Positions 5,998-22,017 of a DNA stretch of 22,287 nucleotides are shown in pieces (positions within the stretch are counted from its first letter, which is position 1; every line of letters starts with the position of its first letter). Source of the DNA: a bacterium Ga0077546. Lineage in GTDB: Bacteria; Cyanobacteriota; Vampirovibrionia; Obscuribacterales; Obscuribacteraceae. The translations under genes were made by a program, and so were the position numbers. Location: positions 1-22,287 of the forward strand of contig LNEX01000279.1 of NCBI GenBank assembly GCA_001464165.1, read 5' to 3'. The notes below the pieces were generated by a model, which saw only the letters and a program-made list of their open reading frames with translations, searched no databases and had not been told where the DNA came from.

Positions 5998-8553
5998 TTA
6001 TTCGACTGTCTCTTTCTCAGACGATTTCTCGCTGTCTTTAGACTTAGAGGCTTTCTCTGGCTTGTCTGTTTTCTCAGTCTTGCTAGTTTTGGCTTCTTCT
6101 TTGTCTTTATCTTTGTCGCCTTTCTCAACCGGCTTGGATACTTTGCCCGGCACCTTAACGAAGACGACTTTACCGTCTTCAACCATGGTATCGATGACAT
6201 CACCTTCTTTGAAGGTTCCTTGCAGAACCTGTTCAGAGATTGCATCTTCAAGCATACGTTGGATTGCTCTACGCAACGGTCTGGCACCATAAGCAGGATT
6301 GTAGCCTTCTTTGGCGATAAGGTCTTTGCTCTCGGTAGAGATGACCAATTCCATTCCGTTTTGCTTGATGCGCTTTTGTAGATCGGACGACATGATGTCG
6401 ACGATGTAGCGAATCTCTTCTTTGGTCAACTGTTGGAAGACGATGATCTCATCTACACGGTTGAGGAACTCTGGTCGGAAGGTCTTCTTCATCGAATCCA
6501 TAACAAGATCTTTGATCTTCTTATAACGCTCTGAGTGTTCTGCGTCCTCTGTCTGAACTTGGAAGCCCAATGTGAGAGACGTCTTGTCGATGAATTGAGC
6601 ACCGACGTTAGAGGTCATAATGATGATAGTGTTCTTGAAGTCTACGGTGCGACCCTTACTGTCAGACAAGCGGCCGTCATCCAAAATTTGGAGAAGAACG
6701 TTGAAGACATCTGGGTGAGCTTTTTCGATTTCATCGAAGAGCACTACAGAGTAGGGTTTGCGACGAACAGCTTCTGTCAGCTGACCACCTTCTTGGTAGC
6801 CAACATATCCAGGAGGTGAACCAATCAACTTAGAAGTTGTGTGGTGCTCCATGAATTCTGACATGTCAATTCTGATCAAGTTGTCTTCTGAACCGAAGAA
6901 GTAACCAGCCAAAGCCTTAGCCAATTCGGTTTTACCAACACCGGTTGGTCCGGAGAAGATAAAGCTGCCGATTGGTCTATCTGGATTCTTCAAGCCAACT
7001 CTTGCGCGGCGAATAGCTTTGCAAACAGCTTCAACAGCGTCGTTCTGACCAATTACTCGTTGGTGCAGTACATCAGCCATGTGCAGCAATCTTTCAGATT
7101 CGCCTTCGGTCAGCTTGAGCAGCGGGATGCCTGTCCATGCGCTTACTACGTGGGCTACTTCCTCAGGAGTAACTGTTGGTTTTTCTGATTCTTGCTTGGC
7201 TTTCCAAACAGCTTGAATTTCGCGAATCTTCTCAGAAAGCTTGGTCTCTTGCTCTCTCAAAGAAGCTGCTTTTTCGAACTCTTGGTTGCGAATTGCCATT
7301 TCTTTATCGCGGCGAACAGCACGCAATTCTTTCTCAACTTCTTTGCCTTCTGGTGGCAAGCTAGATGCTCTCAAACGCACTCTAGATGAAGCTTCGTCGA
7401 TGATGTCGATAGCTTTATCTGGAAGGAAACGGTCAGAGATGTAGCGGTCAGAAAGTTTGCAAGCAGTGTCGATTGATTCATCAGAAATGATCAATCTGTG
7501 GTGCTCTTCGTACTTAGGACGAAGACCGCGCAAGATTTCAATTGTTTCTTCAACAGATGGTGGATCAACAATAACTGGCTGGAATCTACGTTCTAGAGCA
7601 GCATCGCGCTCGATGTGTTTGCGGTACTCATCCATCGTTGTAGCGCCGATGCATTGCAGCTCGCCCCGAGCAAGAGCTGGTTTGAGAATGTTAGCAGCGT
7701 CGATAGCGCCTTCCGCAGCACCAGCACCAATCAAGGTGTGAAGCTCGTCGATAACCAACATGACGTTGAATTCGCCTCTATATTTGGTACCAGCAACTAG
7801 CAGACCGATATCAAGCATGACAATTTTCTTGTCGAGCAAGATTTCAGGAACGTCTGAGTTAGAAATGCGAATGGCCAAACCTTCTGCAATCGCTGTTTTA
7901 CCAACGCCTGGTTCACCAATCAATACTGGGTTGTTCTTGGTACGACGACCGAGAATCTGAATAACCCGTTCAATTTCTTTTTCACGACCAACCACTGGGT
8001 CAAGCCTATTTTCTTGAGCAGCTTGGGTCATGTTGACGCCAAACTCGTCAAGGGTAGGGGTCTTAGAGCGACCAGTTGAAGTCGAACTGCCAGAACCAGA
8101 ACCAGTAGTAGCAGCGCCACTTTCGCCCAGTAAGCGAATGACATGGCTTCTAACTTTAGTCAGGTCAACACCAAGATTCTCTAAGACGCGGGCAGCAACG
8201 CCCTCGCCTTCACGAATCAAGCCAAGCAGCAGGTGCTCTGTACCAATATAGTTGTGACCTAATTGGCGAGCCTCATCCCAAGACAATTCGAGCACTCTTT
8301 TGGCTCTAGGTGTAAATGGAATTTCTACAGCGACGAAGCCGGAGCCACGACCGATGATTTTTTCTACTTCGACACGTGCATCTTTAAGGTTGACGCCCAT
8401 AGACTTGAGAGTCTTGGCGGCGATACCGGTACCTTCACCGATCAAACCTAGAAGAATTTGCTCTGTGCCCACAAAATTGTGACCAAGCCTGCGCGCTTCT
8501 TCTTGAGCGAGCATGATTACTTTGATCGCTTTTTCCGTGAACCTTTCAAACAT
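5998..8553 (-). CDS. clpC: ATP-dependent Clp protease ATP-binding subunit ClpC, with a 15-residue gap in D1
   Basis: AAA+ unfoldase that feeds substrates to ClpP. Order: Clp_N domain with two half-repeats (about 1-145); short Gly/Ser linker; D1 with Walker A GEPGVGKT (213-220), pore loop KYRG (257-260) and Walker B VIDE; UVR-like coiled middle region around NQEFEKAA (423-430); D2 with Walker A GPTGVGKT (535-542), pore motif GYVG and a ClpP-docking LGF loop (662-664); and a long Lys/Glu/Asp-rich tail. The Clp_N part is nearly identical to cyanobacterial ClpC as I remember it. Oddity: after KYRGEF the sequence goes straight to NVMLVIDE. The roughly 15 residues that family members carry there (an EERLKKIMDEI-type helix) are missing, in frame, at about base 7767. 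The start ATG has GGGGG eight bases upstream. Confidence 0.96.
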
Positions 8554-10000: not shown

Positions 10001-11671
10001 TCAATTCGGCGAAGTAATCACATCACGACGAATATAAATTCGGTGATCATCAACAACACCAGCAAACTGATACTGCTCAAAGATGGGGTCTTCGATAAAT
10101 TTAGAATGTTCCAGTATGTCCCATATGCGCATGTTTTGAATCATTATCAACTTGGGCTTAGTGCGGCGTATATCAGCCTTGTAATCCGCCAAGACCTTAG
10201 CTCTAAAGCCATCCATCTTAGCTTGAACCAACTTGGCTCTAGCTAATTCTGAGCCGGCGTTGTCACTGGCGTATAGCAAAGTGGGCAATAACATGCCGTG
10301 CAGATAGCGTGACGCTGGCTCGCGCTTGGTTTGCAACAGTAGCGGATATCCAGGTGCGATGCTTCTAGTGATAAACAGAACCCGATCACCAATGTTAGTA
10401 AAGCGAAGAATGACAGCATAAAGCGATTCGCTATCGGCTCTAGCAGCTTGACCTTTGTAGCCGACCAAAGCTAGATCCAGCTTCTCTGCTTCAGCAGCCC
10501 GCTGCACCTGCTCCGAAATTTCCCACACTGCAATTTGCCCCTGCCAAACAACAAGGGCGACCATGCAAACAATATCGAACACTCTACCAGAGCCCCTAAA
10601 AACAGTCAGCGCATACTGCCGCAGCACGCAAGCAGCAATGGCCGCCTCAACGCCTATTAGCATGTACGATCCAGCGACAAAGGGCAGAGCATGATTGAGC
10701 CAAGGCTGCCCCTGAAGCAGATATGCAGACAGAGCAAACAAACTAAAAGCTACCAACGGCATAATCAAAGTGGAATAGCGCATCATCGCCATACCAAGAG
10801 CACAAGCGATGATCAACAAATAAATGCGGTCATTCCACATCTGCGCAAAGCCCACAAGCTGGAACATAATTGAAGTGCCATACTCGTTATAACCGGCAGC
10901 GAAAATCGGCACCATAAAAGAGAAGTAGCCATCTTTCATGTCTTGTGGCATAAGCAAAAGGCAGCAAGCGTAAATCACACCCAATAACACACAGACAATC
11001 GTTTCTGGAGCCACGAGATTGCGCCAGCGTGGTCTTTCCATAAACCAGAGTAGCTCGAGTATTAGCGCAGCACCAAGATAATATTGTTTGAAAAACAGAC
11101 CGATAGCAGCAAAAGTTCCCGCAACGATTGCTGCTTTAGAGCTAGTGGCATAGCCATTCCAACGCAGCCACCTGATTATAAAGAAAGGGAAGAACAGCAA
11201 AAGGAATATATGCTCTCGCTGACCAAACTCATCCAGTTGAGAGAGCCAAAGTGTCAGACAAGAGAACGACACCACAAGCGGCACAAAAACAAAAGCTTCT
11301 TTGTGCTTAGATTGCCGCCACACCAGCCACAAGCTAAAGCCCACGCTATAAAGCCAGCATGCAATTATGGTAAAGGCAAAAGCTTGCGGCGCTGGAATAG
11401 CGAATAATCTCGACACCATTGCCGGTACCGTATGCACATAAAAGGCCAAAGGCGGGTTAACATCAAAAACATCGACGTAGAGCCGCTTACCCTGCAATAG
11501 CTGCTCCCCTATAGCAACAAACATAGATTGATCTGGCGATATCTGCAGAGGAAACAACAGCGGAAACGTCAGCAAGCGCACAAAAACAAGCAGCAACAGA
11601 AGGCCGCCCAACAGGAACATAGAGTTTCTAGTGGGAGTGTCCATCACTAAAGACAAAGGTCGCTTTTTCAT
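10001..11671 (-). CDS. GT39/ArnT-like polytopic membrane glycosyltransferase (second of tandem pair)
   Basis: A 556-residue protein with about ten or more membrane segments and a soluble C-terminal tail. The layout matches GT-C glycosyltransferases (Pmt/ArnT/RgtA type). After the first membrane segment comes a periplasmic loop with an acidic residue (SPDQSMF, candidate catalytic Asp), followed by YVDVFDVNPPL, reminiscent of the NPPL/KPPL motif in ArnT-like enzymes. Such enzymes move a sugar from a polyprenyl-phosphate donor to lipid, protein or glycan outside the cytoplasm; donor and acceptor are unknown. FFIIRWLRWNG and the tail motif APGYPLLLQTKR recur in the upstream gene, so these are paralogues. 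The start overlaps the upstream stop (ATGA), showing an operon. Confidence 0.8.
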   Translation of the reverse strand: MKKRPLSLVMDTPTRNSMFLLGGLLLLLVFVRLLTFPLLFPLQISPDQSMFVAIGEQLLQGKRLYVDVFDVNPPLAFYVHTVPAMVSRLFAIPAPQAFAFTIIACWLYSVGFSLWLVWRQSKHKEAFVFVPLVVSFSCLTLWLSQLDEFGQREHIFLLLFFPFFIIRWLRWNGYATSSKAAIVAGTFAAIGLFFKQYYLGAALILELLWFMERPRWRNLVAPETIVCVLLGVIYACCLLLMPQDMKDGYFSFMVPIFAAGYNEYGTSIMFQLVGFAQMWNDRIYLLIIACALGMAMMRYSTLIMPLVAFSLFALSAYLLQGQPWLNHALPFVAGSYMLIGVEAAIAACVLRQYALTVFRGSGRVFDIVCMVALVVWQGQIAVWEISEQVQRAAEAEKLDLALVGYKGQAARADSESLYAVILRFTNIGDRVLFITRSIAPGYPLLLQTKREPASRYLHGMLLPTLLYASDNAGSELARAKLVQAKMDGFRAKVLADYKADIRRTKPKLIMIQNMRIWDILEHSKFIEDPIFEQYQFAGVVDDHRIYIRRDVITSPN

Positions 11672-13425
11672 TGGTGCTGCCTTCGTGGCAAGAAGACATC
11701 AATGTTGTAATTAAAACCTGCGTGCTCTACAGGCTCTGCATTGGCACCCTTCAAGCGAGCCCGGCCACGCAGTTCGTAATACTTAAGCAAAGTTTCAGCC
11801 ACTTTATGCTTTTTCAGTAAATCGCCAACAGTCACGTCTTGCACAAAAATCATCTTCGCTCGCCGACTGGCAATATCGCGCTCAATACGAGGGTAGAGAC
11901 TTCCTGCATAAGATTGAAACGACTTTGGCTGAAGACTCTCGCGCTCGCAGGCCTCAAGCTCCACCAAACAATCAGACTGTAATAAATAGCCACTAGGTTG
12001 TCGCTTCATCTGCAACATCAGCGGATAGCCAGCCGCTAAACTATCGGTGAGAAACAAGACTTCATCATGTTCGCGAGAGTACTTGGCCAGCCAAGACGCG
12101 CAGTTAGCTGGTTGTGAATTTTTCATTGAGCCTTGTCCGTCATACGAGCTTGAAGTCCGCCCAAGCCCTCGCCCCGAATTATCTTCACTGAGCATGTCAG
12201 GAATCATCTCACTAACCACTTCGCTAGCCAGCGGTAAACCGCGATCAATCTTACTTTCTTGATGCTTTAAGAAAAATCCCGCGAGCAGTAAAACACTTAC
12301 AGCATAGGCAATCAAGGCTACCTTGCCACCAAAAAGTTGCATCCAAAGACCGCTACCAACACAACCAGTGCGACCAATTCTCAGAATTCGTCTAGCAATA
12401 ACTCCGGCTATAGCGAGGTCGATTGAGAGCAAAAGCGCAATAGCAAAAATCATCGGAATGGCGCTGTGACTCAACCCTTTCAATTGACTTAAGTACAGAC
12501 CGAAACCAACCAAGAACATAACAACAAGCGGTGCGGCCAAGCTGGTGCGCCTTATGAACGGCAGTACAAACAAAATGGCAGCAATAGCCACGTAGAAAAT
12601 ATCGCGCCGGTCAGGCACACTGCCGTTGCCATAGATAGACCAATCATGGCACTGGTAGCCCAAATATAGCATTGGAAACACAAGCGAAATATATTTATTT
12701 CTGGCAGCATCTGGAAGAGACAATGCCGTGAGCAAACAAATAGATGCAGCACAAATACAAGCGCGAACTTCAAGCGCCAAAAGAGGTCGAATCTTACGCA
12801 AAGAGAGCAGCCAAAAGACTTCCAGAACGGCTGCGATGTAAAAGAAACCTTGCCACAAGCAAAAACCAAGTCCAGCAAATACTCCACTGGCAATGGCTTC
12901 TCTTCTAGAAACTTTATGACCATTCCAGCGTAACCACCTAATGAGAAAATAGGGCATAAATACGAGCATAGTAAAATGCTCACTCTGACCAAGCTGAAAC
13001 AGCATCAAGACATTTACCAGAGCTAGGGCCACGATAAAGAGCGGAAAGCAATGCCACTCTCTGTGGTGTCGCCTTGGTAGCAAAATTGCTGCACACGACA
13101 ATACCGAAGCAAGAGCAAGAGACCAGGCAAGCAGATTACAGGCCAAAATTGGAGGAATACCCAGAGTTTGCGCCAACAACATTGGTACAAGACTGCCATA
13201 TAGCAGCAGCGGCGAAGATAGACAGAAGAAATCTACATAAGGAATTTTGCCAAGCGCAATCAACTTAGCAGCTTCAAGGTTGAGAGCTACTTCTGGAGCA
13301 ATCATCAACGGGTGCGCGCAGATAACCGCAAAAACCATCACGAACAGAATCACAACCAGAGCCAGGCTGACTAGTGAATATTTTGCCTTATTGTCTAACG
13401 GCATTTTTGCTGCTCTGGCCTGCAT
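11668..13425 (-). CDS. GT39/ArnT-like polytopic membrane glycosyltransferase (first of tandem pair)
   Basis: A 585-residue multi-pass membrane protein paralogous to its downstream partner. Shared landmarks are the first loop (IAPEVALNLEAAKLIALGK, with Glu where the partner has Asp), YVDFFCLSSPLLLY in place of YVDVFDVNPPL, FLIRWLRWNG, and AAGYPLMLQMKRQPS in the tail. Because the DVNPPL-type motif and the acidic residue are altered, this copy may differ in specificity or be less active. Either the ATG at 13425 or the one six codons later (13407) could be the start; neither has a good Shine-Dalgarno site. The ATGA overlap with the next gene argues for coupled, perhaps heteromeric, expression. 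Confidence 0.75.
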   Translation of the reverse strand: MQARAAKMPLDNKAKYSLVSLALVVILFVMVFAVICAHPLMIAPEVALNLEAAKLIALGKIPYVDFFCLSSPLLLYGSLVPMLLAQTLGIPPILACNLLAWSLALASVLSCAAILLPRRHHREWHCFPLFIVALALVNVLMLFQLGQSEHFTMLVFMPYFLIRWLRWNGHKVSRREAIASGVFAGLGFCLWQGFFYIAAVLEVFWLLSLRKIRPLLALEVRACICAASICLLTALSLPDAARNKYISLVFPMLYLGYQCHDWSIYGNGSVPDRRDIFYVAIAAILFVLPFIRRTSLAAPLVVMFLVGFGLYLSQLKGLSHSAIPMIFAIALLLSIDLAIAGVIARRILRIGRTGCVGSGLWMQLFGGKVALIAYAVSVLLLAGFFLKHQESKIDRGLPLASEVVSEMIPDMLSEDNSGRGLGRTSSSYDGQGSMKNSQPANCASWLAKYSREHDEVLFLTDSLAAGYPLMLQMKRQPSGYLLQSDCLVELEACERESLQPKSFQSYAGSLYPRIERDIASRRAKMIFVQDVTVGDLLKKHKVAETLLKYYELRGRARLKGANAEPVEHAGFNYNIDVFLPRRQHQ

Positions 13426-13618
13426 TCATAAAAAGTCTTGACCCGTATACCCATTCACCCTTTCTTGACTCTCGTGCGCTTAGCAAGTCAATACTATCAA
13501 CAGATAACAAACTTATATAACTTCTGTTCTTGACAAGAGCCAGCCGCGAGCCAATTGATATCGCAGATAACGTATACTGCGTGGCCGGATTGCTACAACC
13601 TGCCATGGAGAACTTTCA

Positions 13619-14293
13619 ATGTCGCCAGTGTCACTAATTTCGCTAAGGAAAATAGTCTCTACTTCGGCACTCTGTGCACTACTAGCGTGCACTACGAGTT
13701 CCAATCTGGCACAAGGGGCAGAGCAGCAACAACCTTATCTAGTCATGAGTCAAGCCAACAAAGTCTCTCCTATGCTAGGCGCGACCACATCAGAGAAAGA
13801 CCTGATTGCCTATTTCGGCACGAAAAATGTCAAACGCCAGGCAGTCCACGTGGCGGAAGGTGAAACCAGCAACGGCACTGTCATTTATCCTAACGACCCG
13901 AAGCGACGAGTTACATTTATCTGGAAGAACGTCAAAAAGCGTGATCTGCCAGAAGTTATTCGCATTGAAGACCAGCCCAGTTTATGGATTTTGCCGAATA
14001 GAATTACAACTGGCACCACATTAATTGAACTAGAAAAGATGAATGGCAAAGTCTTCAAAATGTCAGGCTTTGATTGGGATTACGGCGGAAATATATTGTC
14101 ATGGAATAATGGCAAACTGGAATCGCTGCTCAAGTCTAAGTCAGGAAAAGTCAGTGCCACAGCATGTCTAGCGCCACCCAAAGACAAGAATAGCTCGGAC
14201 GAACTATCAGGCGACAAAGAGATACTATCTAGCAACGCCAGTATGCATAAGTTGAACCCAGTGGTGGTAACGATCTCGATACTGGCACCCTAA
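13619..14293 (+). CDS. Exported protein, probable lipoprotein, 224 aa
   Basis: The ATG has GGAGA seven to eight bases upstream. The N-terminus is a secretion signal (RKIVSTSALCALLAC): LLAC at 21-24 is an acceptable lipobox, and a signal peptidase I cut after AQGA (31-34) is the alternative. The mature part carries a mixed strand/helix domain with DLIAYFG, then RRVTFIWKN, then LPNRITTGTTLIELEKMNG and FDWDYGGNILSW. The ELEKMNGKVF-type motif followed by a tryptophan/glycine-rich turn looks like a small periplasmic domain I cannot name. It is divergently transcribed from the glycosyltransferase operon. Function unknown; possibly an envelope protein. Confidence 0.72.
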   Translation: MSPVSLISLRKIVSTSALCALLACTTSSNLAQGAEQQQPYLVMSQANKVSPMLGATTSEKDLIAYFGTKNVKRQAVHVAEGETSNGTVIYPNDPKRRVTFIWKNVKKRDLPEVIRIEDQPSLWILPNRITTGTTLIELEKMNGKVFKMSGFDWDYGGNILSWNNGKLESLLKSKSGKVSATACLAPPKDKNSSDELSGDKEILSSNASMHKLNPVVVTISILAP

Positions 14294-14374
14294 GACCAAA
14301 AAAAGAAAAAATTTGGAAAACACAACGAAATCATTCGTGGAATTTCGCTTCTGCCCACAACGCCAGTCCCTTGC

Positions 14375-14403
14375 TTGACATACGATTGCGCACAACCAAT
14401 ATT
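14375..14403 (+). promoter_or_regulatory. Candidate sigma70-type promoter
   Basis: TTGACA (14375-14380), a perfect -35 consensus, is separated by 17 bases from AATATT (14398-14403), which matches the -10 consensus at four of six positions. Transcription would start near 14410, at the edge of the palindrome at 14411-14430, and run towards the 3' end of the large Clp_N gene on the opposite strand. Confidence 0.45.
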
Positions 14404-14410
14404 AGGTACA

Positions 14411-14430
14411 TGACGTTGTACACTACGTCA
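14411..14430. promoter_or_regulatory. 20-bp imperfect palindrome, likely operator
   Basis: TGACGT-N8-ACGTCA, with additional symmetric bases inside (GT and AC). It lies seven bases after the candidate -10, where a bound dimeric repressor would block initiation. No regulator gene is adjacent, so the protein that would bind is unknown. Confidence 0.4.
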
Positions 14431-14477
14431 AAACATACCTACACTTACAATCCGAAAGGACCCAAAAGTAACCGACA

Positions 14478-14585
14478 ATGAGCAAATACGTAAGATTCAA
14501 TCTGACATTTATGAGGTTAGTTCGCGGCAAACTAACACAGCTAAGGTACTTGGCCTGGCTGGCCTTAAAGCAAGCCACCACCTAG
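14478..14585 (+). CDS. Possible 35-aa cationic small protein
   Basis: ATG to TAG frame encoding [20 protein letters not shown]... and ending LALKQATT. It has seven Lys/Arg and no Asp/Glu, alternating with hydrophobic residues, as in an amphipathic basic helix. It lies downstream of the candidate promoter and palindrome. Its TAG stop overlaps the stop of the convergent 1414-residue gene (CTAG shared). Against it: the only purine-rich stretch (AAAGGA) is 17 bases upstream, too far for a normal ribosome binding site, and a frame of this length occurs by chance. It may instead be a non-coding or antisense transcript. Confidence 0.25.
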
Positions 14586-17500
14586 CGAACTGGGCGCAGA
14601 CTAAGAGCTACCAAGAACGGCAAAAACCGCTCATTCTCACTCTCACCCAAGGCCAACAATAAGTGCTTGGTCCGCACCCAGCCGTCTCCTTCAAAACGAG
14701 AAAGCTGGAATGCCCGTAAAAGCGCTTGCTTAGCCAGATTGTTAAATGCTACAAAAGTGGAAATTTTGTCTTGGTCAATGCCTGTTATCAACTTGTCGAG
14801 CTTATCGCGGATAGCAAATCTGTCGATACTGATCGATTCTAAGTAGTGAGCACAAGAATCTGTCGGCAAATTAACGAGTGCAAACAATAAATGCGGCGCA
14901 TCAACAATGCCTTTATTTCGGCTGCATGAATCAGCCTTGGCTCCATTTATCACAGTACGTAGATTGGCTGTGAAACGATCTTCTAGCAAAGACCAATCGT
15001 CTTCAGGTTGTTCAAGGCCTAGTTCTCGAAATTGATAAGGCGATTTACAAATTGCTGCTTGATAGTTAAAAATTGGCTCGACAACTGCGTTCTTGAGCAT
15101 TGCTAAGTCAGCTCCTCGCCATTGAAGAATAATACATGCCAACGATTGCTTGTCATCTAAAAGGCTCCGCAACAAATGTTCAGTTGTCACAGGCCCATTG
15201 TCCAAAGCCGCCATCTCTCTCGCTCGCTCAAATAGCTGCTGCGCTTTCAATGTATAGGAAGCTCTTACAACACCTGGTGTCGACTCAATTCCAACAAATC
15301 TTTCAACTAGTGATATCAATATCGTTGGCGTCAAACCCAGCAGTTTTAATGCTGTAGCCGTTTTGCCTTCATCAACGAAGAAAAGTCCGATCAAAACCTG
15401 CTCGCTTCCAACCAGGCTATATCCGCACGCTCTAGCGGCCTCCTGTGCCACCATAACCACTTGTAGCGAGTCTGCAGAAAAATTGACAAAGCGACTAATA
15501 GCATCAGGGAAGAAATTAGAAATCTCCTTTTGTAGCTCAGACTGAGCGACAATAGGCTTTTTAGCTTCATCAACGATAGCACTTGTTTGCTCCAAAAGAA
15601 GCTTACGCAACTGCAAGAGATCCACGCCTAGGGTTCTAAGTATTGTCACCCCAGCGCAATCTTCGCGATTGAGGCTGCCGCAGTCTACAATCCTCTGCAA
15701 ATCAAGAATTCCAAGCAGAAGTTGGTCTGCCCCGACAATATCCGAACCAAAAGTTTGAGCTTCTTTAAAGGCTTTCTCAATGGCAAGTGTGGCATTTCTA
15801 CTGAAAGGTAAATCACCACTAGAATGATCGGTGCCTTTTCCGAATTGTTCTTCGTTGGTGAGTCGGAGCAAGGTGTCTGTAACACCAAAGGCATTTAAGG
15901 CCCTAGCAGCAACAGTGGTACCTTCAGCACAAATACCAACTTGTAAGTGGTCGGTGCCAACTTCGTTTCGCCCCAAACGCTGTGCTTCTTCTACAGCCAG
16001 CTTAATCACTGCTGTAAAGCTGCAATCGAAATGCTTTGCCCGCATGTCTTCCGCTGTAAGCTCAACTTTAATAGGTGTTTTGATCTCTGCAAGACCCAAC
16101 TCAGAAACGCTGCCTTGTAGCGGTGAACCTGCAAGATCAAACGGTTCAAGACTTTCTGTAGCCAGTACTAACTTCGATCTATTTTCGCCAAGCAGCTCAA
16201 GAACAGTTTCCTTAAACGTTTTAAGGTCTAGTCTTCCCCAACGAAAAAGCTCTGTACAAGCGTTAATTTCAAGTATGCTTAACAGCAAGTGATCAGAATC
16301 AATAGCGATACTTTTGCGCTGTTCCGCTATATCAAATGCTCTCTCAAGAGCGTCCTTCGTCTGGCTCGAAACTTTAAGAGTTTGCGGTCTAGACGAGCTT
16401 TTGGCGTCCAAATGCTGAGCGCTACTGCGCAATTGATGTAACTCAATACCACTGATATTCAGAGCCTTTGCAGCAGTGCTTTCTTTGTCACCAGCCAAAC
16501 CAAGCAAAATATGATCAGGCTCAAAACAACTATGAAGTAAAGTCACCGCCTCAGACTGAGCCCGAACTAGCGCATCAATGGCAGGCATTGTAAAAAGTTC
16601 ATCCATGTCTGACTCTGTTAAACAAAGGAGCTGTCTCACTTTCTCAAGGTGAGAAGCAGCAACAGAATCAAGGGTTGGTTTTCTTAGATTGAGAGCCATA
16701 TTCTCTCGCAATCTCTCAACGCTGATATTGAATTTTTGCAATAGGTCAAAGACTGTTCCACTATCTTGAACAATTATGCCAACAAACAAATGCTCTGGCC
16801 TTACTAGCTCAAGGCCGACTGCAGCCACTTGGTCAAACGCATATTGCATAGCTTGCAATGAGTGTTCGCCAAAGACTACATCGCTGCTGCAATCACCCTC
16901 ACCGTAGCCAGTAAGGTCCTCAACTTCGAGGCGAAGTTCATCAAGTGATACACCCAGCTTTCTGAGCCGCTCAGCCCCTTTGTTTAGTCGTTCGTCGCAA
17001 ATACCGAGCAGCAAAAATTGCGAATAAATCTGCGAATGACCGAGCCTAAAAGCCTCTTCTTTGGCGAACATTAGTGCTTTTATTGCTTCATCAGAAAAAC
17101 GCTCAAAGCCTTTTTGCTTTGAAAGAGGCACTAGAGCTGAATACTTCGCGCCCAACTGCGGTGGGGTGTTAGCTCTTTGAAGCATTTTCTTTAGTCGTTC
17201 TAGGTCAATCGACAAATTGCGCAACACCTTAAGACCAGCGCTCTCCTCGTCTGCTAATAGAGCTAGCAACACGTGATCAGTACCGACATAGGTTCGCTTT
17301 GCTTCTCTTGCCAGCTGCCGCGCTGCCAAAATCAGTTCGTTAACCTTAGAACCACACTTAGACTCACACGGAGACTCGCACTTCTCACGACCCGGCATCT
17401 TCTCAGATTCTTGCCGCAACTCTTTAGTCTTCACATCCCAGACATGCAAAGCCAGAGAAGCTAAACCATCTGCTTCTGTCATCAGGCCAAGCAAAAGATG

Positions 17501-18826
17501 ATCAGTATCGACTTCAGCATGACCAAGCCGGTGAGCCTCTTCTCTTGCCAAGGAAATAGCGTGTTCGACCATGGTGGTAAGTGTCAGGGTGGGTTGAAGT
17601 AAGTCGTTCGCATCAGCCTTTTTCTCTTCCGCAGCAGCGAACTTATCCCCTTTTTGCTCTGCCTCAACAACTGGACTAGCAACTTGGGGCGATTCAACAG
17701 TATTCTCTTCCGAAAAAGCTTTCTCTTGGACAACAGACAAAGCCTTAATCACATTTCGCAGCTCATCCACAAACAGCTCAATGTTCACACCGAGCTTCTG
17801 AAGCCCCTTAACCGCTCTACTTTCCTCATAGCTCAGCAAAGCAAAAAGCAAGTACTCCGGGGTAATTAACGAACTACTTGCTCGCCGTGCTGCAACCGAA
17901 GCCATTTCCACGGCAAAAAAGACTTGTTTAGACAATTCAAAATCTTGAGGATCAGACTCAGAAACTTTTTCTTCATCCTCTGGTGTTGTTGCCAATCTCA
18001 AATCTTCAAGCGCAACAGACTGTCCGGAGAGAAGTCTAGCGGCCTCGCTGCTACCCTCCGACAATATCCCCAGCAATAGGTGATGCAGCTCAAGCTTTTT
18101 ACTACCGACCAGACAAGCCTCTTGCTGAGCTAACTGCATTGCAATAATGGCAGTTTCAGAAAAAAGAGTGGCGACATCAGGCCTTGCCGCTTGATCGTTA
18201 GTAGGCGGACCTGCCACTGGGCCGTTTGCCGAGCGAACTAGGGCCTGAGACGTAACAGGAACACCAGACTCAACCAGAGGGTCAGGGTGAACCTGAGCAG
18301 GCGCCGGAACAGAAGTAGCAGAAGTAGTAGAAGTAGCAGCGTCAATAGAAGCATGCGCTGGATTTGTACTTCCTATTTGCTGCTGCTTGCTTGCCTTCTG
18401 AATACGAACAAGAACATCATCATTGACTTTTTCGAGATTTACTTTTCTGTTTTTCAGTACTTTGTGGGCAACTCCATCATCAACTGCAAGCAGTCCTAAC
18501 AACAAATGTTCTGTACAAATATAGTTATGTCCCAAATCCCGTGCGGCATTCCAACCCGCCTCAAGAATTCTCCTTGCTCTTGGCGTGAATGGTATTTCAG
18601 CCCCAACTACGTCCTTGCCTTTACCAATCAGCTCAAATACGGCGATTCTTAAATCTTTCAAGTTCAATCTATGTGCACGAAGAACTTTAGCGGCAATACC
18701 AGCACCTTCTCCCTGCAAACCTAGCAAGACATGCTCAGAGCCGACAAAGTTATGACCCGTGCGGCGGGCCTCTTCTTGAGCCAACATCAGCACTCTAATG
18801 GCTTTCTCAGTGAAACGTTCGTACAC
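14582..18826 (-). CDS. Giant ATPase-less protein of eight tandem Clp_N domains (1414 aa)
   Basis: By my reading the whole protein is Clp N-terminal domain: 16 half-repeats of about 60-75 residues pairing into eight domains (about 1-150, 216-366, 414-551, 571-715, 741-882, 932-1081, 1104-1250, 1280-1412). Each half-repeat has the A-x(2)-EA helix, an acid-His turn (T-E/D-H), the LLLGLL helix and the L-x-xLGVdL-x-xLR helix. There is no Walker A, Walker B or other AAA+ motif. The first domain is closest to ClpC in this window (39 of the first 50 residues identical by my count); later ones are increasingly degenerate. Linkers are Ala/Ser/Thr/Pro-rich (151-215) or Glu/Lys-rich (367-410). In Clp unfoldases this domain binds clients and adaptors, so a capture scaffold or competitor for ClpC is plausible but unproven. 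GTG start, coupled to the upstream gene by TAGTG. Confidence 0.93.
18311..18337. repeat. Three 9-bp tandem repeats in a linker-coding stretch
   Basis: AGAAGTAGC, AGAAGTAGT and AGAAGTAGC follow each other directly. On the minus strand they encode ATSTTSATS (residues 164-172), part of the flexible linker after the first Clp_N domain. Length is divisible by three, so copy-number change would keep the frame. Confidence 0.7.
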
Positions 18827-19275
18827 TAAACCACCCCATCGGGCGGATTAATCTCATCTTGCACCCACTGCTGCAAGCGGGCCATATCAACTTTGAGATT
18901 GCGCAGAGTTTTACAAGCAACACCATCGCCCACGCGCAAAAGACCAAGAATTAAATGCTCGGTGCCAATATGATCGTTGCGAAACCGACGAGCCGAGTCC
19001 CAAGAAAGCTCTAAAACCCTCTTTGCCCTTGAATCAAAAGGCATTTCGTCAGTGGCTTTTTCACGACCACGACCAATTTCTTTCTCTACAGCCGACCGCA
19101 GAGCCTCCAAAGTAACGCCTTCTTCAGTCAATGCCTGAGCAGCAATGCCTTCTTCTTGCGCCATCAAACCCAACAGTATTGCCTCTGTACCAACGCGGTT
19201 GTGACCCAAAGCAGCGGCTTCTTGTTGTGCCAGCCTAATAGTCTCAATAGCGCCCTCGTTAAAACGCTCAAACAT
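18826..19275 (-). CDS. Stand-alone single Clp_N-domain protein, 149 aa
   Basis: The entire product is one Clp_N domain of two half-repeats: [19 protein letters not shown] with GTEA at the first turn, then [19 protein letters not shown] with [10 protein letters not shown] at the second. It ends after a short acidic tail with no ATPase domain. It resembles the first 145 residues of ClpC encoded 10 kb away on the same strand and is probably a duplication of that part. Known stand-alone Clp_N proteins (ClpT/ClpR-associated in plants and cyanobacteria) bind the Clp core, which makes a similar role possible. I prefer the ATG at 19275 (GAGG eight bases upstream); a TTG just before it could also serve. 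Its TAG stop overlaps the GTG of the 1414-residue gene by one base, so the two are one operon. Confidence 0.92.
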
Positions 19276-19300
19276 CAACTGAACCTCACGGGATAATGCT

Positions 19301-19433: not shown

Positions 19434-19748
19434 ATGCCCTTCGGAGAAACACATTCTGCGGTTGGCCATTCTGAATCTGCAGCTGAAAATTCTGCATCGT
19501 CAGATAAATCAGACTCGGGGTTATCTAATGCTCAGCGCCTTAGCCGCGAAGCAAATTTAATAGTTGAAGTCGGCCGCGGCGTCGTCAATCGTGTCGACGA
19601 GCTAACCGATAATCCAGGCCAGGTCGCCGCCCAACTAGGTGGCTCAATGCTGATTGGCGCAGGTTTAGCTCTAGCCCAAGGGAAAGCCGGGGTGGCCCGC
19701 GAAGTAGCGCAAATCGTGGGCGCATCTATGACTGCAAAACTCAATTGA
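19434..19748 (+). CDS. N-terminal fragment of an HD-GYP-type protein, ended by an apparent frameshift
   Basis: The frame begins with a Ser/Glu/Ala-rich stretch (residues 1-35), then a helix (LIVEVGRGVVNRVDELTDN) and a hydrophobic Gly/Ala helix (LGGSMLIGAGLALAQG), and stops at TGA 19746-19748. Immediately downstream, the +1 frame is open from 19732 without a start codon until 19891 and continues the same style (SIESTWKNPDGENREAKNA, then an Ala/Gly-rich helix) into the HD domain. Removing one A from the AAAA run at 19736-19739 fuses the two frames into one protein of about 411 residues (19434-20670). It is therefore part of a broken gene or a sequencing error, rather than a separate small gene. 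Confidence 0.65.
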   Translation: MPFGETHSAVGHSESAAENSASSDKSDSGLSNAQRLSREANLIVEVGRGVVNRVDELTDNPGQVAAQLGGSMLIGAGLALAQGKAGVAREVAQIVGASMTAKLN

Positions 19749-19890
19749 GAGTACCTGGAAAAACCCCGATGGTGAAAACAGAGAGGCCAAAAATGCCGCC
19801 AATGCTCTGGGCGCATTTATTGCTGATACCGCCATTTTTAGTGCGGGTGGAATAGTTGGCGTAAAAGTTGCCCGCAACTCTAGCGTATAC

Positions 19891-20670
19891 ATGGGCGTTC
19901 ATCACAGTATCGACAAGGCTCTGGGTATCCGCACCCAAGAGCAGCACGCACTCTTGCGCCAGCAAATGTTGGGCTATCATCCATTGACGGCGCACCATCA
20001 AGATCGCGTAGGTAACATGAGCCGAATCATCGCTGAAGGCATGCGCCTTCCACCTGCTTCAGTTGAGAAAGCATACCTGGCAGGAAAAATGCACGACATT
20101 GGTAAGCTCAAGACACCAACCGAAATTCTCAATTCACCGGGCAAATTAGACGGCCACGAGCGGGCAGTGATCAATCACCACGCCACTGACACTGGTGTCA
20201 TTCTCAAAGGAAAAGTTGACTACCCCAAACGTCTTGCCGATCTGCCCACAGTAGCGCAGAATCACCATGAGCGCTTGGATGGCCGCGGCAGCCCCAATCA
20301 ACTTAGTGGTGATCAAATTGCCGTTGAAACAAGGGTCAATACTGTTGCTGATGTCTTTGACGTGCTTTCTCACGGTCGCTCATACAAGACTCCTACCCCG
20401 GTTTCAAAACTAATTGACGTGTTTGACCGCGGTCGGGGTACTCAATTTGACGGCAAGGTCTTAGATGCTTTTCTGCACCAACCAGCCTCAAAGGTTCTGC
20501 CACTGATGCTTTCAGAGGGTGGTAGTATCTCTAGAGTGTCCCCAACTTTTAGAAAAGTTGAAATTGGTGATCTCTTGCGCTCAGTCAAAGACCATAAACC
20601 TGTACCCGGCAGTTCAGTGACAGTGGATCATATCAATCAGTTCAATTCACTCTATCTGGGCGCACAGTAG
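19891..20670 (+). CDS. HD-GYP-type phosphohydrolase domain (C-terminal part of the frameshifted gene)
   Basis: The metal-binding HD-GYP landmarks are present: HHQDRV (35-40), the HD dyad with lysine in KMHDIGKLK (67-74), paired histidines in INHHA, HHERLDGRGSP (125-135) and VADVFD (152-157). HD-GYP proteins usually hydrolyse cyclic di-GMP (or cGAMP) with a di- or tri-iron centre. Here the hallmark GYP reads GSP, so substrate handling may differ. ATG 19891 is simply the first start available after the frameshift; the natural protein probably begins at 19434. It is convergent with the DUF4143 ATPase gene (60 bases between the stops) and divergent from the Clp_N operon. If translated only from 19891 it still contains the complete catalytic domain. 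Confidence 0.85.
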   Translation: MGVHHSIDKALGIRTQEQHALLRQQMLGYHPLTAHHQDRVGNMSRIIAEGMRLPPASVEKAYLAGKMHDIGKLKTPTEILNSPGKLDGHERAVINHHATDTGVILKGKVDYPKRLADLPTVAQNHHERLDGRGSPNQLSGDQIAVETRVNTVADVFDVLSHGRSYKTPTPVSKLIDVFDRGRGTQFDGKVLDAFLHQPASKVLPLMLSEGGSISRVSPTFRKVEIGDLLRSVKDHKPVPGSSVTVDHINQFNSLYLGAQ

Positions 20671-20730: not shown

Positions 20731-22017
20731 TTAGAAAAACGACCATAGCATCGACAGAGGTAAGCAAACTCGGCCTGGACCCATAGTGAGCAGTTGATCG
20801 CCGAGGTAGACCACGAACCCAATCGAGTTAGGCGCATATGATTTACCTGGCCCCTCACCAAGGAACCAATCAATAGACTTGAAGTCAGTTCGTGCCACTG
20901 TAGATGATGCCTTAATCTCAAAGAGAGCAAGACATCTTCCGGGCCCTTCAGCTATAATGTCAATCTCAGCCTTGTCCGAACGCCAATGAGAAAGATGCCA
21001 TTGACTGCTAAGCAACGGCAGTGATTTCTCAAGTTCCTGATGAACAAAACTTTCAAGAATCGCACCTATGGCTGTCGGATCGGCTCCAAGATCAAAACTG
21101 GCCGCCGTCTCATTACGTAACGCTGAGGCACAACCAGTATCAAGGAAATGCAGCTTCGGCCAGTGCACAGCCCGCTTGACGGCTGAAGATGCCCATGAAG
21201 GCAAGCGCTGAACCAGGCATACTTGCTCCAACCTATCCAGCCAGCCGCCAACTGTTTCTTTTCGTGCGCCAACGGCATTGCAGAGGTTGGATATATTGAG
21301 CTCCTGCGCAGTCCGCGCTGCCAGCTGGTCGATCAGGCGACGCAGCAGATCGGGCTTTCGAACCGCTGCCACAATCGGAACATCTCTCACAATCAGACTG
21401 TCAATGTAGCTGCTGTAACGTGCTATGCGCTGACGATCATCAATAGTGCGAATTTCAGGGAATCCTCCCCTCAGAATCAAATCAATGGCTGTATCTCTCA
21501 AGTACGATTGAACAGAGGGCAGAGCAGCCATAATTGCAGCTGGGCCCGACTCAACAGCATCCAAAAGTAGACAAGGGCCTGCACCTTTTATTTCAGCAGC
21601 ACTAAAGGGCCGTAACATGAGAGTATGAACGCGACCAGCAAGGGAATCGCCGGCAGTGACTAGGCCGAAGACATCGGCAGAGCCAGTCAATATAAACTGT
21701 CCCTTGCGATTATCTTCGTCAACTATCCTTTTTAGAGCTAGGACGATTTCGGGAACCCTCTGTACTTCATCGATCACGATCGGGAGACCACTTTCTTTGT
21801 GGCGATCCGCCATAGTGCGAAGTTGAGCATAGGGGTCCGCACTCAATGCATTGCGGATGCTATCGGTGTCCATTGTGACGTATTCGGCGATCGGCACCTG
21901 ACGCTGAACCAGCGTGCTTTTCCCAGCTTGCCGTGGACCGACTATATTGACGATGCGACTGATTTCGAGTGCCTCAGCTACTTTCGGAGCAAGATGACGT
22001 TTTACTAGATTGGTCAT
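20731..22017 (-). CDS. AAA ATPase with DUF4143 domain
   Basis: A 428-residue protein of the ATPase/DUF4143 family. Walker A is GPRQAGKST (27-35), Walker B is IVIDEVQRVPE (80-90), and a sensor-like ILTGSAD is at 109-115. A helix-turn-helix-like stretch (LSNL..AVGARKETVGGWLDRLEQ region) is typical of DUF4143. The C-terminus has a PD-(D/E)XK-like core: EIDIIAE followed by LALFEIKAS. Family members are widespread, often mobile or patchily distributed, and their physiological role is not firmly known; some annotations link them to toxin-antitoxin-like or defence functions. ATG 22017 gives the normal family length. No partner gene is coupled to it. It sits between the Clp_N operon and another Clp_N gene at the right edge. 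Confidence 0.9.
   Translation of the reverse strand: MTNLVKRHLAPKVAEALEISRIVNIVGPRQAGKSTLVQRQVPIAEYVTMDTDSIRNALSADPYAQLRTMADRHKESGLPIVIDEVQRVPEIVLALKRIVDEDNRKGQFILTGSADVFGLVTAGDSLAGRVHTLMLRPFSAAEIKGAGPCLLLDAVESGPAAIMAALPSVQSYLRDTAIDLILRGGFPEIRTIDDRQRIARYSSYIDSLIVRDVPIVAAVRKPDLLRRLIDQLAARTAQELNISNLCNAVGARKETVGGWLDRLEQVCLVQRLPSWASSAVKRAVHWPKLHFLDTGCASALRNETAASFDLGADPTAIGAILESFVHQELEKSLPLLSSQWHLSHWRSDKAEIDIIAEGPGRCLALFEIKASSTVARTDFKSIDWFLGEGPGKSYAPNSIGFVVYLGDQLLTMGPGRVCLPLSMLWSFF

What the first reader, a model, noticed from the sequence alone, without database searches (positions are those of the whole stretch)
14582..18826. A 1414-residue protein that is nothing but eight tandem Clp_N domains
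Seen: 16 half-repeats of the Clp_N type in regular pairs, linked by flexible segments, with no AAA+ motif from end to end. Known: Clp_N is normally a single N-terminal domain on ClpA/B/C that binds clients and adaptors; stand-alone proteins usually carry one. Inference: an octavalent capture device. It could collect clients for ClpC, hold them as a chaperone, or act as a sponge that competes with ClpC for adaptors. I know of no described protein with this architecture.
Basis: partly seen in the sequence, partly recalled or inferred. Interest (0 to 1): 0.92.

Follow-up and report, generated by a model that had tools for sequence, protein, structure and literature searches.

The report
Eight-fold Clp_N protein beside clpC
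A bacterium that appears to be a non-photosynthetic relative of cyanobacteria carries, near the gene for the protein-unfolding machine ClpC, a large protein made of eight copies of ClpC's client-docking domain and no motor; it is conserved in relatives and looks like a multi-site docking hub or decoy for the ClpC system.

Summary
On the minus strand, 18826-14582 encodes 1414 aa with eight Clp_N domains (weakest i-Evalue 1.6e-9; best of 1000 shuffles 8.7 bits) and no AAA+ domain. It belongs to a family of 21 retrieved proteins with 6-10 Clp_N domains; named relatives point to Candidatus Obscuribacterales. The window copy lacks the last domain of the 9-10-domain members. The domains are not interchangeable: positions form their own clades. 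Domains 1, 3 and 4 are under strong purifying selection (dN/dS 0.04-0.08); the rear half and linkers are more relaxed. In the window protein the two aromatic residues of the ClpC ligand groove occur together only at domains 1, 4 and 7, and so in 13, 14 and 14 of 14 family rows. A one-domain Clp_N gene lies directly upstream and overlaps by one base. In 5 of 5 genomes where array and clpC share a contig, the array is upstream on the same strand. Best reading: an ATPase-free, hetero-multivalent docking hub of the ClpC system; a ClpC2-like decoy is the main rival. Eight equal sites are not supported. Clp_N repeats occur elsewhere, so: new variant of a known kind.

The parts
14582..18826 (-). Multi-Clp_N protein, 1414 aa, eight Clp_N domains, no ATPase
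18371..18826 (-). Domain 1 (res 1-152): ClpC-like (59% to own ClpC N-domain), keeps groove aromatics Y2/F80 and both pArg-type Glu (E31, E106)
   Evidence: dN/dS 0.042
17696..18163 (-). Domain 2 (res 222-377)
17156..17569 (-). Domain 3 (res 420-557): most conserved of the family, 81 of 138 columns invariant in 14 rows; no groove aromatics
   Evidence: dN/dS 0.035
16673..17107 (-). Domain 4 (res 574-718): groove aromatics F574/F652 in 14 of 14 rows
   Evidence: dN/dS 0.082
16181..16600 (-). Domain 5 (res 743-882)
15575..16015 (-). Domain 6 (res 938-1084)
15074..15490 (-). Domain 7 (res 1113-1251): groove aromatics F1113/Y1191 in 14 of 14 rows
14648..14980 (-). Domain 8 (res 1283-1393), last helix missing in the window protein
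18826..19278 (-). One-domain Clp_N protein, 150 aa; its TAG stop shares one base with the GTG start of the large gene (TAGTG, seen in the sequence printed)
   Evidence: same overlap in L001, L002, L050; dN/dS 0.045
5998..8553 (-). clpC (851 aa), 6.0 kb downstream, same strand

Best explanation
The gene makes an ATPase-free docking protein of the ClpC system: a chain of eight (in relatives six to ten) Clp_N domains on flexible linkers, probably made together with a one-domain Clp_N protein. Shown: the domain content, the conserved domain order, the selection pattern, the groove aromatics at domains 1, 4 and 7, the one-base gene overlap and the clpC linkage. Inferred: domains 1, 4 and 7 bind the hydrophobic segments or peptides that the ClpC N-domain binds; domains 2, 3, 5, 6 and 8 bind other partners or each other, with the domain 3-4 block as the specific core; the whole gathers clients and adaptors on one chain and holds them for, or passes them to, ClpC. 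Delivery versus mere holding is not decided.
For: Eight domains, no AAA+. Linkers of low confidence and low pTM (0.45, 0.38), as for separate modules on a string. Domain positions 1-6 and 8 form clades across the window protein, P0004, P0007, P0016 and L002, position 9 across the four that have it, all with ultrafast bootstrap 100; position 7 does so only together with the G107/G053 domains (99); G107/G053 domains also join positions 2, 8 and 9 (100, 100, 98). dN/dS against L001: whole 0.25, D1 0.042, D3 0.035, D4 0.082, 150-aa gene 0.045. Groove aromatics together at D1, D4, D7 in 13, 14 and 14 of 14 rows; in ClpC2 the two conserved Phe largely mediate peptide binding (PMC10030653, section read). 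Array upstream of clpC, same strand, at 0.36, 1.2, 6.0, 6.3 and 11.5 kb in 5 of 5 genomes where both lie on one contig. All ClpC adaptors characterised to date bind the N-domain (passage of PMC12583610).
Against: No binding partner was shown. D6-D8 and linkers have higher dN/dS in the window/L001 pair (0.28-0.58) and the window protein lacks the last domain of its 9-10-domain relatives. Only 4 of 53 genomes of the order score above ClpC level with this family's profile, one of them by a contig-edge fragment. D5 also has both aromatics in 2 of 14 rows (P0017, P0018), so the 1-4-7 pattern is not strict. D6 with G107_4 was not recovered as a clade. G003 holds other Clp_N arrays but no ClpC ortholog was found in it, so arrays need not serve ClpC; the genome may be incomplete.
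Confidence: 0.42

Rival explanations
1. Decoy or sponge: the array and the one-domain protein offer ClpC-like docking sites that soak up peptides, phage proteins or surplus adaptors which would otherwise misdirect ClpC, as mycobacterial ClpC2 does for cyclomarin A.
For: ClpC2 precedent (PMC10030653: abstract, introduction, one results section and discussion read). D1 (59%) and the 150-aa protein (54%) stay close to the own ClpC N-domain and keep the groove aromatics. ClpC itself is nearly unchanged between window and L001 genome (dN/dS 0.006) while arrays vary in domain number.
Against: Domains 2-8 are only 25-36% identical to the ClpC N-domain, and the best-conserved block, D3-D4, is not ClpC-like; a decoy needs mimicry, not position-specific divergence.
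Confidence: 0.27
2. General Clp_N sensor or scaffold module not tied to ClpC: Clp_N repeats are used in many bacteria as a protein- or peptide-binding scaffold, and this array serves a signalling or stress role of its own.
For: Clp_N repeats fused to TIR, protein kinase plus bifunctional nuclease, sigma-70 plus DinB, cNMP-binding and carbamoyltransferase domains; one Clp_N fused to a kinase in G003; ClpN repeats fused to vWA proteins in conflict systems (PMC7159879, passage); arrays in G003 where no ClpC was found.
Against: Linkage to clpC in 5 of 5 genomes that can be judged, and D1 grouped with ClpC N-domains (ultrafast bootstrap 80).
Confidence: 0.17
3. Regulator of ClpC assembly: the array contacts ClpC M-domains or the ClpP ring, as the own N-domains do in the resting state or as plant ClpT does with the ClpP ring.
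For: ClpC N-domains stabilise the resting state through the pArg sites and K85 (PMC12583610, passages); D1 keeps T6, K8, E31, T81 and E106 and has conservative changes at 85 (K to R) and 122 (R to K). ClpT2 is among the fold matches.
Against: Most of these residues are changed in most other domains; nothing here tests contact with ClpC or ClpP.
Confidence: 0.09
4. Decaying duplication of clpC's first domain without function.
For: Rear half less constrained and one domain fewer in the window lineage.
Against: Open frame of 1414 codons, strong purifying selection on D1, D3, D4 and the 150-aa gene, conserved order.
Confidence: 0.05

Closest known systems
ClpC N-terminal domain (ClpC/MecB, ClpC1; PF02861)
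   Same: Same fold, domain 1 59% identical to the own ClpC N-domain; Foldseek top hits are ClpC N-domains for both model halves
   Different: Eight domains in a row, no AAA+ modules
Mycobacterial ClpC2
   Same: AAA-free Clp_N protein beside a full ClpC in the same cell; 8b9o is a fold match, 8ad9 and 9p2p match the 150-aa protein by sequence
   Different: ClpC2 has one Clp_N plus an N-terminal dimerisation part and represses its own gene (PMC10030653); here eight diverged domains
Plant ClpT1/ClpT2
   Same: AAA-free protein; ClpT2 4y0c is a fold match
   Different: Associates with the ClpP ring (PMC7966870, passages); ClpT2 chain is 142-158 residues, one domain's length
ClpN-repeat vWA proteins of the FtsH ternary conflict systems
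   Same: Repeats of the ClpN domain are mentioned (PMC7159879, passage)
   Different: There fused to vWA; no vWA or MoxR found among the window ORFs scanned
Multi-Clp_N proteins of Paractinoplanes globisporus (P0033, P0037, P0049), Planctomycetaceae (P0034) and unnamed sources (P0039, P0040, P0042, P0094)
   Same: Three to six Clp_N domains; precomputed Pfam lists PF02861 alone
   Different: Fewer domains and retrieved through P0022, not through the window protein; not placed in my trees. P0022's own six domains form a clade of their own (ultrafast bootstrap 100)

Membership tests
Clp_N domain family (PF02861) | Profile match over the gathering score | tested here: met
   343.2 bits against 20.7; eight domains
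Clp_N domain family (PF02861) | Two-half helical fold | tested here: met
   AF2 and Foldseek: TMt up to 0.96 (first half) and 0.92 (second half) to ClpC N-domains
ClpA/B/C AAA+ unfoldases | Two AAA+ modules with Walker motifs | tested here: not met
   No AAA family; NCBIfam unfoldase scores 97-179 bits, far under cut-offs of 885-1900
ClpC2-type stand-alone Clp_N | Clp_N without AAA+ in a genome that also has ClpC | tested here: met
ClpC2-type stand-alone Clp_N | Single Clp_N with an N-terminal dimerisation part | tested here: not met
   Eight domains; domain 1 starts at residue 1
ClpC2-type stand-alone Clp_N | Binds peptide ligands of ClpC and shields ClpC | not testable with these tools
   Groove aromatics kept at D1, D4, D7 are consistent only
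ClpT | Single Clp_N fold | tested here: not met
   Eight domains
ClpT | Bound to the ClpP ring | not testable with these tools
   No interaction data
pArg reader like the Firmicute ClpC N-domain | Both pArg glutamates (E32, E106 in ClpC numbering) | tested here: inconclusive
   Both kept in D1 (14 of 14) and in D7 (E1142 14 of 14; E1216 12 of 14, else D); one or both altered in D2-D6 and D8 of the window protein
pArg reader like the Firmicute ClpC N-domain | McsB arginine kinase in the genome | tested here: inconclusive
   PF00217 in 0 of 53 genomes, but it rang in 0 of 14 control genomes too
ClpN-repeat conflict systems | vWA fusion and MoxR/FtsH partners | tested here: not met
   Not in the 19 window ORFs scanned with Pfam (3, 10, 6); only 22 kb seen

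The most novel reading that the evidence does not exclude
A distinct class of motor-free Clp_N arrays: long chains in which every third domain (1, 4, 7) is a ClpC-type ligand groove and the domains between are fixed, position-specific partners, forming a programmable client hub beside ClpC; with the TIR, kinase and sigma-factor fusions elsewhere, Clp_N repeats would be a general bacterial docking module that has gone largely unnoticed.
Probability: 0.3. Interest if true: 0.82.

Novelty: new variant of a known kind. Interest (0 to 1): 0.62.

Why it matters
Clp_N is the control point of ClpC: adaptors, marked substrates and antibacterial peptides act through it (PMC12583610, passages). A natural protein that strings eight to ten diverged copies together without a motor, near clpC, suggests that docking can be separated from unfolding, and offers native multivalent binders to test how ClpC inputs are collected, shared or blocked. 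The conserved order and the 1-4-7 groove pattern give concrete, mutable predictions.

Tried and rejected
Chance or low complexity: rejected by 1000 shuffles. Cut-off AAA+ part or ninth domain downstream: the gene's frame over 14200-14612 shows stops and no continuation; tblastn with the ninth domains of P0004 and P0017 over 13000-14700 found nothing but an 11-residue match at the gene's own end. Recent tandem duplication: rejected, domains group by position. Arginine-phosphate system: McsB search empty but its control was silent, so left open. ClpS link: ClpS in 50 of 53 genomes; the three without are G001, G002 and G113, two of which carry the array, but G101 (array fragment) and G107 have both array and ClpS, so no rule. 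Promoter and terminator patterns were at shuffle level. A check in the window's own genome was not possible.

Weak points: the Clp_N profile was built from nine ClpC-type sequences, among them the window's ClpC and 150-aa protein, so hits on those two are by construction. Of the 21 family proteins, 13 went into A1 with the window protein; left out were P0001 (99% identical to the window protein but from another record and not letter-for-letter the same), P0003, P0006, P0009, P0010, P0011, P0013 and P0015. The 14 rows are related, so invariant columns are not independent events. The bootstrap tree used 73 of the 91 domains; dropped were the G003, G079, G087 and L002 three-domain-gene domains. 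One search listed the best 120 of 6105 matches. The correspondence of the ClpC2 phenylalanines to F2 and F80 is my reading, not stated in a passage I saw.
Full report
What is there. The ORF lies on the minus strand, 18826 down to 14582, 1414 aa, GTG start. Pfam gives Clp_N at 343.2 bits with 13 separate stretches and no AAA+ family. A profile of the whole ~150-residue Clp_N domain resolves eight domains, i-Evalues 5.3e-55 to 1.6e-9; 1000 shuffled copies reach at most 8.7 bits against 28.8 for the weakest real domain. AlphaFold2 models of residues 1-725 and 726-1414 (22-row alignments; mean pLDDT 75.5 and 71.7, pTM 0.45 and 0.38) show repeated four-helix halves at pLDDT mostly 70-96, with linkers under 50 such as 149-217, 368-411 and 883-931; the last half lacks its fourth helix. 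Foldseek matches both to ClpC N-domains (TMt up to 0.96 and 0.92). I read this as a string of beads.

Neighbours. Directly upstream is a 150-aa one-domain Clp_N gene whose stop shares one base with the start of the large gene; the same one-base overlap between the one-domain gene and the next Clp_N gene is seen in L001, L002 and L050, so in 4 of 4 loci with that gene ahead of another Clp_N gene. In L048 (G087) a one-domain gene stands last in the row and is not counted. clpC lies 6.0 kb further on the same strand. In the five genomes where array and clpC share a contig (window, G001, G002, G107, G053), the array is upstream on the same strand, at 6.0, 11.5, 6.3, 1.2 and 0.36 kb; the G107 and G053 arrays are more distant relatives. 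In L001 and L002 a further two-domain gene stands between topA and the array, and L002 has a three-domain gene as well.

The family. Of 32 proteins, I take P0001-P0021 as the family; P0001 is 99% identical to the window protein but differs at several residues, so it is another record. Scores run from 2751 down to 1070 bits, then drop to 250 (P0022) and 56 for ClpC. Domain counts of the 21: six in one, eight in four, nine in nine, ten in seven (P0015 is named 'partial'). Named relatives: bacterium isolate Gw_Eff_bin_360, a Candidatus Obscuribacterales MAG, 'Cyanobacteria bacterium PR.023' and a soil metagenome; the order belongs to the Cyanobacteriota/Melainabacteria group. With the family profile, 4 of 53 genomes of the order score above ClpC level, one by a 221-residue contig-edge piece; a draw of 382 genomes of the class gave the same four on top, the other matches shown being ClpC-like N-domains by their frame length. 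Other Clp_N arrays occur in G053 (4+1+3 domains over three ORFs), G087 (1+2+2) and G003 (3+5).

Not interchangeable repeats. Domain trees group by position: positions 1-6 and 8 each form a clade across five proteins and position 9 across the four that have it (ultrafast bootstrap 100); position 7 forms one at 99 only with the G107 and G053 equivalents; positions 2, 8 and 9 also take in their G107/G053 equivalents (100, 100, 98); D6 with G107_4 was not recovered (73 of 91 domains used). The ten-domain P0007 and P0016 have one more domain inserted after position 2. Domain 1 groups with ClpC N-domains (80). Against L001 the whole gene has dN/dS 0.25; D1 0.042, D2 0.22, D3 0.035, D4 0.082, D5 0.13, D6 0.37, D7 0.28, D8 0.43, linkers 0.58; the 150-aa gene 0.045 and clpC 0.006 (Nei-Gojobori, one pair). 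Invariant columns over 14 rows: D3 81 of 138, D4 63 of 145, D2 43 of 156, D1 33 of 152, D6 28 of 147, D7 23 of 139, D5 17 of 140, D8 1 of 111 (two rows lack it), linkers 16 of 286. So the front half, with a D3-D4 core that is not ClpC-like, carries most of the constraint.

Ligand sites. The ClpC N-domain has two phospho-arginine pockets (E32, E106), K85 and a hydrophobic groove (PMC12583610, passages). In ClpC2 two conserved phenylalanines largely mediate peptide binding (PMC10030653, section read); by my reading, helped by the F2Y and F80Y mutant entries listed, they correspond to F2 and F80 of ClpC. Both positions are aromatic in D1 (13 of 14 rows), D4 (14 of 14) and D7 (14 of 14); both in D5 in 2 of 14 (P0017, P0018); in D2, D3, D6 and D8 in 0 of 14. 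The one-domain protein keeps both; the G107 protein has the pair at its first and fifth domains, the equivalents of D1 and D7. The Glu pair is kept in D1 and D7 (E1216 in 12 of 14) and changed at one or both sites in the other domains of the window protein. This 1-4-7 pattern is the sharpest functional hint found.

Mechanism. I take the array for a motor-free docking hub of the ClpC system with three groove domains and five specialised ones, gathering or holding clients and adaptors. Shown: anatomy, order, selection, groove pattern, linkage. Inferred: ligands, ClpC contact, direction of effect. The chief rival is a ClpC2-like sponge (PMC10030653: abstract, introduction, one results section and discussion read). 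A third reading is that Clp_N repeats are a general scaffold: elsewhere they are fused to TIR, kinase plus nuclease, sigma-70 plus DinB, cNMP-binding and carbamoyltransferase domains, ClpN repeats are mentioned in conflict systems (PMC7159879, passage), and G003 has arrays although no ClpC ortholog was found there.

Partners. ClpS is in 50 of 53 genomes of the order; McsB in 0 of 53 with a silent control, so undecided. A full ClpC at 96-100% identity was found in 5 of 8 genomes checked (G001, G002, G053, G079, G107).

Known or new. No paper on Clp_N arrays of this kind appeared in the listings (only open-licence full texts are held). AAA-free Clp_N proteins (ClpC2, ClpT) and a mention of ClpN repeats exist, hence 'new variant of a known kind'.

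Noticed in passing
window 5998-8553 (-): The window's ClpC is 851 aa, 15 shorter than the 866-aa ClpC of L002, L051 and L053; the missing stretch lies in the first AAA+ module before the Walker B region. Real deletion or assembly artefact.
   Followed up: partly
window 19434-20670 (+): The HD-domain gene (HD_5) is two ORFs here but one 426-aa ORF in L001:8603-9883 (-), so it is broken or mis-assembled in the window.
   Followed up: no
P0022, P0035, P0036, P0038, P0043, P0047: Two to six Clp_N domains together with both carbamoyltransferase (OTCase) domains; in the four scanned (P0022, P0035, P0043, P0047) the enzyme part is C-terminal.
   Followed up: partly
P0044, P0045, P0050, P0051, P0052; L057:900-2348 (-): Clp_N repeats fused to TIR, protein kinase plus bifunctional nuclease, sigma-70 plus DinB, cNMP-binding; in G003 a single Clp_N fused to a Ser/Thr-type kinase.
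   Followed up: partly
L056:1787-2968 (-), L059:2178-3359 (+), L058:1638-2756 (-): A 372-393-aa protein with two Clp_N halves and a C-terminal part without Pfam match (only L056 was scanned), on contigs other than those of the arrays.
   Followed up: no
G001 and G002 (genomes of L001, L002): No ClpS match and no ClpA-type Clp_N frame seen in these two genomes, while 50 of 53 of the order have ClpS; loss or assembly gap.
   Followed up: no
window 10001-13425 (-): Two adjacent large proteins, membrane-type by eye, without Pfam match, between the array and clpC, kept in L001 and L002.
   Followed up: no
window 20731-22017 (-): An AAA_14 plus DUF4143 protein stands beyond the HD gene, on the side where L001 and L002 have the two-domain Clp_N gene and topA.
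   Followed up: no
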